DNA of 64,000 nt, from the NCBI GenBank assembly GCA_021234155.1, contig JAJEKV010000051.1, forward strand, positions 8,884,105 through 8,948,104, in the 5' to 3' direction. Of this stretch, positions 51,192 through 57,685 are shown in pieces. Within the stretch, counting starts at the first letter, position 1; each line of letters opens with the position of its first letter. The position numbers and the translations under genes were made by a program. Below the pieces are notes generated by a model. It had not been told where the DNA came from, searched no databases, and worked only from the letters and a program-made list of their open reading frames with translations. This DNA is from Isoetes taiwanensis (lineage: Eukaryota; Streptophyta; Lycopodiopsida; Isoetales; Isoetaceae).

Positions 51192-51371
51192 TAGATAGAT
51201 AGATAGATAGATAGATAGATAGATAGATAGATAGATAGATAGATAGATAGATAGATAGATAGATAGATAGATAGATAGATAGATAGATAGATAGATAGAT
51301 AGATAGATAGATAGATAGATAGATAGATAGATAGATAGATAGATAGATAGATAGATAGATAGATAGATAGA
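51192..51371. repeat. TAGA/GATA microsatellite, about 45 units
   Basis: Uninterrupted tetranucleotide array that directly abuts the left 400-bp direct repeat. Its open frames are artefacts. Confidence 0.97.
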
Positions 51372-51773
51372 TTGGCATCTAGTCTTTATAAGTCTAATCT
51401 TGACCAAGACCAGTAAATCAATAGGCCAGAACCTTGTCTAAGACCTATGTCTTTTTGCCCTAGTCTCCTAGGTAGCCAAGATTAACAAACAAATGTCTAA
51501 ATTTCTGGAATAACAGAAAATGTATTGAATGCTTTTAAGCAAAGAGATCTACTCCTTATTACCATAATACACGTATTCAAAACAATAGCAAATCTTCTAA
51601 TGCCTGTATAGATCTTTTCCTTTCTTTTGTATCAAAAGCAAACGTTGAGATTGTATTTACCTTGAAAGTTTAATAACCAGAAGATATACAATAATATCAT
51701 GTATAAACGTCACTACACACAGGTTACTTAGCATTTATTCAACACAAAAAAACTTCATCCCTGTCCATCAAAT
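51372..51773. repeat. Left direct repeat of the Penelope-like element (pseudo-LTR)
   Basis: 402 bp, nearly identical by eye to 57068-57467. The only differences noted are ACACACAGG versus ACACCTGG and CATCCCTG versus CATCCTG near the right end. It begins TTGGCATCTAGTCTTTATAA right after a TAGA array. Direct terminal repeats are usual in Penelope-like elements and unlike retroviral LTRs. Confidence 0.92.
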
Positions 51774-52868
51774 TTGACCGGGGAAGAGCCTCTACACCGC
51801 CACCGATCCACAAGAAAAATGAGTTAGAAAACCAATTTATCTATGTGGGAAGGAAGGCGGTGTCATAGGCCACCCTTCGGTTGCTATCCCGTTCCTAGAA
51901 AAATCGATAATAACATAAATTCATGCATAAAGATCAAAGCACAACTTTTAGTCTAAGTATAATCTCATGCTAAGATTAAACACGCTACTTTCGGTTGAAT
52001 GTTTTCAAACGACACACTTGTAAAATACCTTAGGATTTTTGGGAGTGACACAAGTATTAGGAAGCACTGACTATGCCATTTCGTTTCCTCACTTGTATCG
52101 GCCCTACGCACCGGTCTTCAAGCATTTTGCCGGGAGCTTGGCGGCATTACTTGCCTTTTGGATTCGCGGCTTTGCTTGCGGGACCCCAATTTTGCTTGAT
52201 TATTGTTCTTAGATCCCTTTGGTCTACCCATCTTGCCTCTTGGAGATCTGAGATAGAACCTAAAGCAGTGTTTTGCAAGAGACAGCCTCGGCATGCACAT
52301 TGGAGGCCTGACCCGGAACTTCGCTTTTTAAATTCCCCTTGCTTTGTCTCTGCTCAGATCAAGAACCAGCACGGCAGGCGGGAATCATGAGTGATCGGAT
52401 CAGCCTGTTCATCCTATTATGACGAATCTCAACAGTTTTTACTGTTGTAACGAAAAAACTCAGCTATTGGGCGGCCCATTCAAAAACCTAGCGTTAACCT
52501 CTTAGGGTATTTTTTACCAAGGTTTTGCACACCCCAATCTATGCATTCCCATGCACCAACATGTCATAAAAAAACTGTTCTGTCTAGTCTGTGCTGGAAC
52601 ATAGACTTGATACATAATGATATGGTCACAAGAAGGAGACGAATTATTATTTTTGAAGAGCTTAATGAACATAGCTAGGTAGCTTCTGCGCTCACAATTA
52701 CCATTGATTAAAATCCAGTCTATATGACACGCAGATAGGACATGCACAACGCTTGGACATAATGCTGACTCAGGCACTCAAAGATTGTTTGGCACTAGCA
52801 CATGTCATTAAAAACCAGTCCTGACTAGTTTCTGCTGGAATTTCTTTCCTCAGCTACTATTCTAGTCT
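51774..52868. other. Arm sequence right of the left direct repeat; holds an AT-hook-like frame
   Basis: About 1.1 kb present here but missing after the right direct repeat. On the minus strand at 52300-52118 a frame includes GKMGRPKGSKNNNQAKLGS, a good AT-hook core (GRPKGSKN). No start or splice context supports a complete gene, so it may be an exon remnant or chance. Confidence 0.4.
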
Positions 52869-52962
52869 GTGCTAGTATTTCCTTCTCTAGATTCTAGTCT
52901 AGTCTCGTCTTTAGATAGATAGATAGATAGATAGATAGATAGATAGATAGATAGATAGATAG
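52869..52962. repeat. Shared 23-base motif and short TAGA array
   Basis: GTGCTAGTATTTCCTTCTCT continuing AGA at 52869-52891 recurs at 57468-57490. A TAGA array of about 12 units follows at 52914-52962. The right arm has the same motif-then-TAGA order. Confidence 0.85.
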
Positions 52963-53120
52963 CAAAATTATACCCTTCCTCCTTCCGCAGGTTAAGGGAC
53001 CTAGTCAGGACTTAAACTAATAAATCCAGGCTAATGCTAAGCTGGGTGCAGTAGGAAACCCAGCAGAACTAGGTCCCTACATACACCCGTAGTATAACAA
53101 AAATATAGAAGTAAAAAACC

Positions 53121-56100: not shown

Positions 56101-56941
56101 CAGCCATATGATTCTTTTGGTTTACATACAAACCATACGGACAGTCACAGTCTTTTTCAAAGACTTTGGTGCCAAAGGGCAAGTCCACAAGATTCTTGTC
56201 AAGGATATGATCCCCTGCCTCCATAATATCCTTAACAGTCTTGACTTGTTCCTTGTCAATATCTGCCAGGTACTCCCACGATTCTTCACTAATTGGGGCC
56301 ATAACTCCCAGATTTTTGCACCTCCACATAGCATTGTCATACTGCCTGGCCAGTGCCTCCACCACATCATTTGTCAGGGCTGGAAACAGGGAGCTGTTTA
56401 CCATGTTTAGCCTGACTACTTCCTTCCTCTGCAATGGCTCAGCATTGTGATTTGCATTACCTCCATTAAGAGGTCTCTCCAGTAGGGCAGTCTTGAAAAT
56501 GCTGTTTCCCAACTTTGGGGTACAACTGTTTCTCTTGGGAATAATCACATCAGAAGCCATGCTTTTGCTGACATTGTTTGTTGCTTCAAGGCAAATATTT
56601 ACCTTTTCAGCCATTGCGCTAAAAAAGTCTTCTCTTTCTGTTCTAGAGAACAGTAGTTCTTGCATGCCATTGTAGGCGTCATCCAGAAGCCCAAAAATAG
56701 CACCTGGTTCTTTCATATAGCCAGCGAGCAATGCTAACCAATGATTGAATCCAAGATATGCTACTGCAGAGTACCTGCTATCAGTGACTTCGAGCTCCTT
56801 GCAGACAATATACTCATGCACTTGGCTATCCCCAAAACAACATAAAACTGCTTGTACAGCCTTGTTTGGGATCTGACAAGTCAGTGCAGAATACCCTAAA
56901 GCAGCAAGGTCTTTATCCCAGCTCTTGCTTCCAGATGCCAT
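53121..56941 (-). pseudogene. Penelope-like element polyprotein/RT, no GIY-YIG domain seen
   Basis: The first exon starts after an acceptor (TTTTCAG) with MASGSKSWDKDL at 56941 and is open for about 500 codons. A second acceptor (ACTTTCAG|GTGGAAGCC) precedes the open stretch ending at 54393. There MLKKGLNHIPLRRWD matches the KGLNF-type motif and VAGVDKATNN the DKG motif of Penelope RTs. Next come GLPYLFAVYKAHKHSFRWIT, TADITKCYESIPLDG (catalytic Asp), KSGIAMGFSCSPQWCNLYLA and FRYMDDLCLIN (YxDD). The thumb-like GTEINFLSMNLEVL to NKYLIK ends with a stop and no endonuclease. A stop and frameshift near 54370-54400 and another shift near 53520 indicate decay. Confidence 0.85.
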
Positions 56942-57067
56942 CTGAAAATATAAATTCTTCACTTTTAGAAAAAGAACTCAGAAATCATGAGACATTTGTT
57001 GGAAACCTTAGACTAAAACCCATCCTTGGATTGGATTAGCAAAAATTTCCTAAGCAAAATAGATAGA

Positions 57068-57467
57068 TTGGCATCTAGTCTTTATAAGTCTAATCTTGAC
57101 CAAGACCAGTAAATCAATAGGCCAGAACCTTGTCTAAGACCTATGTCTTTTTGCCCTAGTCTCCTAGGTAGCCAAGATTAACAAACAAATGTCTAAATTT
57201 CTGGAATAACAGAAAATGTATTGAATGCTTTTAAGCAAAGAGATCTACTCCTTATTACCATAATACACGTATTCAAAACAATAGCAAATCTTCTAATGCC
57301 TGTATAGATCTTTTCCTTTCTTTTGTATCAAAAGCAAACGTTGAGATTGTATTTACCTTGAAAGTTTAATAACCAGAAGATATACAATAATATCATGTAT
57401 AAACGTCACTACACCTGGTTACTTAGCATTTATTCAACACAAAAAAACTTCATCCTGTCCATCAAAT
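57068..57467. repeat. Right direct repeat of the Penelope-like element (pseudo-LTR)
   Basis: 400 bp in the same orientation as 51372-51773. Two TAGA units precede it, and the 23-base motif followed by a long TAGA array comes after. On the minus strand it lies upstream of the polyprotein and probably carries its promoter. Confidence 0.92.
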
Positions 57468-57486
57468 GTGCTAGTATTTCCTTCTC

Positions 57487-57685
57487 TAGATAGATAGATA
57501 GATAGATAGATAGATAGATAGATAGATAGATAGATAGATAGATAGATAGATAGATAGATAGATAGATAGATAGATAGATAGATAGATAGATAGATAGATA
57601 GATAGATAGATAGATAGATAGATAGATAGATAGATAGATAGATAGATAGATAGATAGATAGATAGATAGATAGATAGATAGATAC
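57487..57685. repeat. TAGA microsatellite, about 50 units
   Basis: Uninterrupted array at the outer side of the right arm. The adjacent unique sequence begins CATTATTGTCCC. Confidence 0.97.

What the first reader, a model, noticed from the sequence alone, without database searches (positions are those of the whole stretch)
51192..57685. Endonuclease-less Penelope-like element inside a TAGA/direct-repeat frame
Seen: an RT with KGLNH, DKA, GIAMGFSCSP and YMDD motifs ends about 100 codons after the thumb with a stop, and no GIY-YIG segment follows. Two direct repeats of 400 bp differ at only two or three places, and TAGA arrays abut both arms. Known: PLEs without endonuclease occur in rotifers, fungi and some seed-free plants (Athena/Coprina group) and keep introns. 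Inference: this is a recent plant member whose insertion may depend on TAGA microsatellites, not telomeric ends.
Basis: partly seen in the sequence, partly recalled or inferred. Interest (0 to 1): 0.8.

Follow-up and report, generated by a model that had tools for sequence, protein, structure and literature searches.

The report
Cutter-less jumping gene homing to TAGA repeats
In a plant genome, probably a quillwort's, a jumping gene that copies itself with a telomerase-like enzyme but seems to lack a DNA-cutting tool sits inside simple TAGA repeats, apparently finding them by matching a short TCTA stretch in its own RNA.

Summary
Window 51192-57684 is a broken copy of a Penelope-like element (PLE), minus strand: shortened pseudo-LTR, ORF1, telomerase-type RT, 1.5 kb 3' pseudo-LTR, TAGA arrays at both ends. 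No GIY-YIG was found in its proteins or relatives; the genome gives 121 GIY-YIG matches, none within 15 kb of the 133 scored PLE RT matches. The TAGA link is a family trait: TCTA-type arrays abut 14 of 18 distinct 5' ends and 11 of 14 distinct pLTR 3' ends examined, while TAGA arrays cover roughly 0.017% of the genome. In 11 of 11 matched internal pLTR-ORF1 junctions there are exactly two TCTA units; termini share that sequence, then run on as arrays. Six of 14 5' arrays directly follow the end of a TCTA-tailed, SINE-like repeat (about 2,250 pattern hits), so arrays probably came first. Sister PLE families tend to end in (TA)n. Best explanation (mechanism inferred): microsatellite DNA anneals to a short RNA seed and primes reverse transcription there, replacing an endonuclease. 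Endonuclease-less PLEs are known; the seed-target match, pLTR organisation and SINE-tail sites look new. The genome is probably Isoetes taiwanensis (assembly size).

The parts
51192..51372 (-). 3'-terminal (TCTA)45 array (TAGA on + strand) joining the element to host DNA
51373..52911 (-). 3' pseudo-LTR, 1.54 kb
   Evidence: same unit in L009 and in other places of the genome
52121..52231 (-). MGRPKGSKNN... reading frame inside the pLTR, AT-hook-like (name recalled; Pfam gave no match); probable first exon (inferred); a like frame occurs in 16 of 21 oriented loci
52912..52962 (-). internal (TCTA)~13 between ORF2 and 3' pLTR
52968..53085 (-). hairpin and CGGnAGGAGGnAGG motif just before the internal microsatellite; motif found in 17 of 21 oriented loci (approximate bounds)
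53124..55211 (-). ORF2, telomerase-type RT, frame broken in this copy (open pieces 54396-55211, 53482-54366, 53124-53555)
   Evidence: fold from sister copy L012
55448..56941 (-). ORF1, 498 aa, conserved protein with invariant Cys and His, no Pfam family
57060..57067 (-). 8-nt seed TCTATCTA at the pLTR-ORF1 junction (exactly two units)
57068..57486 (-). 5' pseudo-LTR, shortened (lacks about 1.1 kb, including the probable first exon)
57487..57684 (-). (TCTA)49 array at the 5' end; the shortened pLTR joins it at TCTAGAGAAGG (shared TCTA)

Best explanation
An endonuclease-less Penelope-like retrotransposon that inserts into pre-existing TAGA microsatellites. The RNA, read through tandem copies, carries UCUAUCUA at each pLTR-ORF1 junction. 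A DNA 3' end inside a TAGA array (nick, break or stalled fork) anneals to this seed, and the telomerase-type RT copies upstream through the 3' pLTR, ORF2, ORF1 and 5' pLTR; the cDNA end then joins the other side of the array through TCTA homology. This yields TCTA array - pLTR - ORFs - TCTA - pLTR - TCTA array. Shown: anatomy, array association, two-unit seed, orientation of the arrays, no recognisable EN. Inferred: that the seed primes, that the arrays came first, the tandem RNA, and how the second end is joined.
For: TCTA-type arrays at 14 of 18 5' ends and 11 of 14 pLTR 3' ends, against roughly 0.017% of the genome in TAGA arrays of 40 bp or more. Exactly two TCTA units in 11 of 11 matched internal junctions; 3-45 units at the eight matched terminal TCTA junctions, with the same preceding sequence. 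Arrays have the TCTA (one: TCCA) sense on the coding strand at 14 of 14 array-bearing 5' ends, as pairing of the seed to the TAGA strand requires. A SINE-like end stands directly before 6 of 14 5' arrays (0 of 5000 control pieces scored as high); that end with TCTA attached has 2,253 pattern hits, control 0; L072 is such an end plus array without PLE, its flank matching that of L010 at 90% over 59 nt. In the window copy the truncated 5' end joins the array at TCTA. Parallel: sister families with junction GTATATAT tend to end in (TA)n. Canonical PLE RT starts internally near the start of the ORF (PMC11167929, passages). Fold nearest telomerase RT.
Against: No empty allele of a filled site was seen. 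Summed arrays of the seven copies with both sides read (14 to 94 units; six of seven at 40 or more) mostly exceed the eight empty arrays looked at (10 to 45), so some repeats may be copied in by the element. Four 5' loci (L016, L056, L058/59, L065/66) and three 3' loci (L046, L047, L048) show no clean TCTA array. SINE-like ends also precede 2 of 8 empty arrays, so the SINE itself is not shown to be preferred. Families L025/L026 show neither seed. A GIY-YIG protein from elsewhere could cut in trans. The ORF1 model is too poor (pLDDT 43) to exclude an unusual nuclease.
Confidence: 0.65

Rival explanations
1. The arrays are made by the element: the telomerase-like RT repeatedly copies the TCTA seed (or slips), writing TAGA repeats onto broken DNA before extending through the element.
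For: Arrays sit at both ends and are long (49 and 45 units in the window); matched TCTA termini begin with the element's own seed sequence; fold nearest telomerase; summed arrays mostly exceed the empty arrays looked at.
Against: Roughly 3,100 TAGA arrays exist (estimate), some being tails of a separate SINE-like repeat; 6 of 14 5' arrays follow such an end; the 5' array would have to be made separately.
Confidence: 0.17
2. TAGA and TA arrays attract any insertion because they are fragile or open; the element has no sequence-specific priming, and its own TCTA ends are captured target.
For: Microsatellites as landing pads are discussed for plant elements (PMC12477314, passages).
Against: Junction sequence and target agree in two lineages (TCTA with TAGA arrays; TATATAT with TA arrays), and the TCTA sense is fixed at the 5' ends; non-specific insertion should give the TAGA sense in about half of the copies.
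Confidence: 0.12
3. A GIY-YIG endonuclease encoded elsewhere in the genome (121 matches) nicks the target in trans.
For: Such coding stretches exist in many copies.
Against: None within 15 kb of a scored PLE RT match; [quoted passage not shown]
Confidence: 0.08

Closest known systems
EN-deficient telomere-associated PLEs (Athena of rotifers; fungal, protist and Selaginella members; Gladyshev and Arkhipova 2007, paper not held, described in passages of PMC3846280 and PMC12477314)
   Same: Telomerase-related RT, no endonuclease found; the only named land-plant proteins among the homologues are Selaginella hypothetical proteins (34-35% identity)
   Different: Interior chromosomal microsatellites instead of chromosome ends; pLTR-ORF-pLTR organisation, which PMC3846280 says protist and fungal EN-deficient PLEs do not share; seed at the pLTR-ORF1 junction
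N-terminal EN+ PLEs Naiad and Chlamys (Craig et al. 2021; paper not held, content recalled)
   Same: pLTRs; a CxC motif ahead of the RT core (CPC); insertion bias for microsatellites (recalled)
   Different: They carry an N-terminal GIY-YIG; none found here
Canonical PLE Poseidon of Anolis (PMC11167929, passages read)
   Same: pLTRs; reverse transcription starts internally, near the start of the ORF
   Different: Has GIY-YIG and a hammerhead ribozyme; its start site is not homologous to the target
Microsatellite-specific non-LTR retrotransposons (recalled; the one search, listed nothing)
   Same: Insertion in simple repeats
   Different: Different RT class, with their own endonuclease (recalled)

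Membership tests
Penelope-like elements (order) | RT related to telomerase RT | tested here: met
   AF2 model of ORF2 of sister copy L012 (pLDDT 86): the 15 best PDB matches are telomerase RTs (E 1e-10 to 5e-5, TM-score to the query 0.33-0.44). The window's own broken RT was not folded; a profile search of PDB sequences gave 0 matches
Penelope-like elements (order) | pseudo-LTRs / tandem arrangement | tested here: met
Penelope-like elements (order) | RT groups with reference PLEs in a tree | tested here: inconclusive
   The tree has relatives from Selaginella, Chara and metagenomes; no curated PLE or TERT sequence was available
EN-deficient PLE | no GIY-YIG domain | tested here: met
   GIY-YIG among the matches of 0 of 19 RT rows (E<=0.1) and 0 of 12 ORF1 rows (E<=1); 0 of 121 genomic GIY-YIG matches within 15 kb of 133 RT matches. 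ORF1 fold unresolved
Telomere-associated EN-deficient PLE (Athena type) | location at chromosome ends | tested here: not met
   20 sites, one per contig, all at least 57.8 kb from the contig ends; contig ends need not be chromosome ends
N-terminal EN+ PLE (Chlamys/Naiad) | N-terminal GIY-YIG | tested here: not met
Canonical PLE | hammerhead ribozyme motif | tested here: not met
   Rfam: none at gathering over the window, none up to E 5 in 51000-58000; sister copies not searched

The most novel reading that the evidence does not exclude
Endonuclease-less PLEs have swapped telomere priming for a programmable seed: a short microsatellite stretch at the pLTR-ORF1 junction sets which genomic microsatellite each lineage enters (TCTA to TAGA arrays, TATATAT to TA arrays). 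The TCTA lineage may also drive a SINE-like repeat with the same tail, which in 12 copies looks often 5'-truncated (9 of 12) and without clear target duplications (1 of 12, inside a CT repeat), so element and SINE would build each other's landing sites.
Probability: 0.25. Interest if true: 0.9.

Novelty: new variant of a known kind. Interest (0 to 1): 0.76.

Why it matters
EN-deficient PLEs are described as priming from exposed chromosome termini or breaks and as largely confined to chromosome ends (PMC3846280). Here many interior copies, with junction sequence and target in agreement in two lineages, suggest that RNA-DNA pairing at a microsatellite end can stand in for cutting. About 75 of the 133 scored RT matches lie in frames of 650 aa or more without stops (counted by hand), so the idea could be tested with real proteins. 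It would carry telomerase-style priming into chromosome interiors.

Tried and rejected
Rejected: one spliced protein of ORF1 plus RT (sister copies show two separate open frames); reading L028's left boundary as a 5' truncation at (TA)n (probably a host repeat); a test whether SINE target duplications bracket the composite loci (SINEs alone show none clearly). Led nowhere: PDB sequence search with the RT profile (0 matches) and with the window RT piece (chance-like matches only); ORF1 structure; protein searches for named reference PLEs; loci of GIY-YIG matches (not completed); literature on microsatellite-specific elements (none listed).

What the terminus counts cover. 5': 18 distinct loci whose 5' edge lay in a fetched stretch: 14 with arrays (W, L009, L010, L049-L052, L054, L055, L057, L060, L061, L062/63, L064), 4 without (L016 and L065/66, 5'-truncated; L058/59, a GTGC-type array instead; L056, edge not located). 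3': 14 distinct loci: 11 with arrays (W, L009, L016, L029-L032, L034, L037, L045, L039/43/44), 3 without (L046 degenerate, L047, L048). Near-identical duplicate loci are merged; TCCA variants (L039/43/44, L062/63) and the degenerate L045 are counted as arrays. Not counted: partial pLTR hits that stop short of the 3' end, copies whose 3' end is missing or was not reached (for example L010, L011, C936, C926), internal junctions, and L053 (pLTR cut, then (TCTA)36, then another PLE piece), L067 ((TCTA)31 further downstream), L068 (none). The small fragments at C1070, C927 and C1043:13984658 were not fetched.

Full report
What is there. The window lies in a 1.66 Gb genome of 1,110 contigs. Its size matches the published Isoetes taiwanensis assembly, 1658.30 Mb in 204 scaffolds and 909 contigs (PMC8566536, passages); I take this as probable, not shown. 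On the minus strand, 57684 to 51192 reads: (TCTA)49, a shortened 5' pLTR, the seed TCTATCTA, ORF1, ORF2 (RT), a hairpin and CGGnAGGAGGnAGG motif, (TCTA)~13, a 1.54 kb 3' pLTR, (TCTA)45. The arms agree at 408 of 411 positions, so the copy looks recent; yet it looks dead: its RT frame is broken and its 5' pLTR lacks about 1.1 kb. Nanopore-type assembly errors may add to frame breaks.

Protein identity. RT motifs are present; Pfam gives only a weak RVT_1 match. ORF2 of sister copy L012 folds confidently (pLDDT 86, pTM 0.82) and its 15 best PDB matches are telomerase RTs, with modest TM-scores (0.33-0.44 to the query). Sequence homologues are Selaginella hypothetical proteins at 34-35% identity, a Chara protein and unnamed, mostly metagenomic proteins (13 hits). 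In a tree of 31 rows the Isoetes sequences form one group (100/100), with the TCTA lineage (L009 only) sister to the other sampled families (98/98). No reference PLE could be added, so placement among PLEs rests on fold, pLTRs and relatives. ORF1 (498 aa here, 530-561 aa in 11 aligned sisters) is conserved but matches no family above cut-off; its model is poor; likeness to a Selaginella protein is confined to one short stretch (E 4e-4). A pLTR frame with GRPPGSKNK- or GRPKGSKNN-like sequence is found in 16 of 21 oriented loci; it looks like an AT-hook (recalled) but Pfam reports nothing (4 peptides). The ORF1 start lacks a conserved ATG and follows TTTTCAG or similar, which suggests that this frame is a first exon (inference).

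No endonuclease found. GIY-YIG is not among the matches of 19 RT-alignment rows or 12 ORF1 rows. As a positive control the genome gives 121 GIY-YIG matches, the nearest 38.8 kb from a PLE RT match and 0 of 121 within 15 kb of the 133. Both lists are capped by the tool (133 of 3,192 and 150 of 263 candidates scored).

Target. Copies were gathered by RT and pLTR DNA and their edges read. TCTA-type arrays abut 14 of 18 distinct 5' ends and 11 of 14 distinct pLTR 3' ends examined; beyond the array the host DNA differs between loci that are not duplicates. TAGA arrays of 40 bp or more number roughly 3,100 and cover roughly 0.017% of the genome (43,290 overlapping pattern hits; about 14 hits per array taken from 7 arrays), so chance does not explain this. 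At the 14 array-bearing 5' ends the sense is TCTA (TCCA in one). Misses: L016 and L065/66 (5'-truncated, no array), L058/59 (a different 4-base repeat), L056 (edge not located); L046 (degenerate), L047, L048.

Seed. The pLTR-ORF1 junction reads CCAATCTATCTATTTTGC or close variants, with exactly two TCTA units in 11 of 11 matched internal junctions. Terminal junctions share the sequence before it and continue as 3-45 TCTA units in eight loci, or as TCCA-rich units in one triplicated locus; one further match (L054, 4 units) is a head-to-tail joint. So the terminus coincides with an internal site, as shown for the Anolis PLE, where reverse transcription starts inside the RNA near the start of the ORF; there the site is not homologous to the cut DNA (PMC11167929, passages), here it is.

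Pre-existing arrays. Six of 14 distinct 5' arrays (L009, L010, L050, L051, L060, L061) directly follow a repeat end like GGCATGACGTAAAAATACTA; 0 of 5000 control pieces scored as high. With TCTATCTATCTA attached this end has 1,126 + 1,127 hits at up to 3 mismatches, control 0. Twelve copies read are up to about 110 bp, often 5'-truncated, and tRNA-SINE-like to my eye (not tested). L072 shows the end and array without PLE, its flank matching that of L010 at 90% over 59 nt. Of 8 arrays (10 or more units) in 7 loci from the head of the array list, 2 have this end: the SINE is a frequent source of arrays, not shown to be preferred over other arrays. In 11 3' flanks no convincing SINE end was found on either strand (best L037, reached by 0.3% of controls).

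Sister families. Of 16 non-TAGA copies fetched, 9 show a 3' terminus: a GCTAGATnAGAyCCTAG-like sequence followed by TA repeats (L012, L015, L018, L020, L022, L023, L028 with about 9 to 73 units; L017 and L021 short). In 7 the terminus was not reached or not found; L024 runs on into a second ORF1 start, as expected of tandem copies. Of 9 5' ends examined, 6 have 11 or more TA units at the pLTR start (one, L082, behind another PLE's 3' end rather than host DNA), L078 has 6, L080 and L083 none clear. The pLTR starts are themselves TA-rich, so the 5' evidence is weaker here. Their internal junctions read GTATATATGCTG or GTATATATACTG: again a short stretch of the target repeat. The window host DNA has no (TA)8 run in 57.2 kb. 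L025/L026 have no such stretch and are unexplained. A hairpin before the internal microsatellite goes with a motif found in 17 of 21 loci (absent from L027 and L028; L010 and L011 lack it too); its pairs are mostly invariant, with few compensatory changes and some mismatches.

Mechanism. Target-repeat DNA annealed to the seed primes RT, which copies upstream through a tandem RNA; the cDNA end joins the array by homology, as suggested by the window copy, whose truncated 5' end joins at TCTA. This is inferred. Rivals are array synthesis by the RT, non-specific fragile-site insertion, and nicking in trans.

Prior knowledge. EN-deficient PLEs are described as priming from exposed chromosome termini, at deprotected telomeres or breaks, and as largely confined to chromosome ends; those of fungi and protists are said not to share the pLTR organisation (PMC3846280, passages). 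Plant examples are named in reviews (PMC12477314, PMC9033089, passages). Microsatellite bias is known for N-terminal EN+ PLEs (recalled; paper not held). The word Penelope does not occur in the main text of the two Isoetes genome papers. Judged by titles and abstract starts, searches listed no paper on microsatellite-seeded EN-less PLEs; most subscription papers are not in that library.

The 5' count was mended from 14 of 17 to 14 of 18, and the confidence of the best explanation lowered from 0.66 to 0.65 for it.

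Noticed in passing
G000 genome-wide; e.g. L085-L096: SINE-like repeat ending GGCATGACGTAAAAATACTA(TCTA)n, 2,253 pattern hits; of 12 read, 9 are 5'-truncated and 1 has a duplication-like flank (in a CT repeat).
   Followed up: partly
G000, 121 places: A repeated GIY-YIG family (many frames of about 115-150 aa) not near the scored PLE RTs; possibly another PLE clade or host genes.
   Followed up: partly
L025, L026: PLE families in the same genome with neither TA nor TCTA at the corresponding junctions; their target is unknown.
   Followed up: no
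window 52968-53085 and 16 of the 20 fetched 10-kb loci L009-L028: Hairpin (GTAGGGTCCTAGCA...TGCTAGG..CCCTAC type) and CGGnAGGAGGnAGG before the internal microsatellite; possible RT recognition element.
   Followed up: partly
L074: Two neighbouring host repeats about 1.5 kb apart, each with its own (TCTA)20-23 array and near-identical flanks.
   Followed up: no
L058, L059: Duplicated locus whose 5' edge meets a long GTGC/TGCG array instead of TCTA.
   Followed up: no
G000:C1058:8831247-8832080 (same contig, about 53 kb left of the window): Another PLE RT match (51% identity) with a 695 aa frame without stops.
   Followed up: no
window 59050-59159: 52-nt inverted repeat with a 6-nt gap, 85% complementary.
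   Followed up: no
window 4374-6897, 34903-38112, 40275-44872 and 20501-23008: Reading frames that look like Gypsy-type LTR retrotransposon remnants and, at 20.5-23 kb, a LINE-type RT (by eye, not searched).
   Followed up: no
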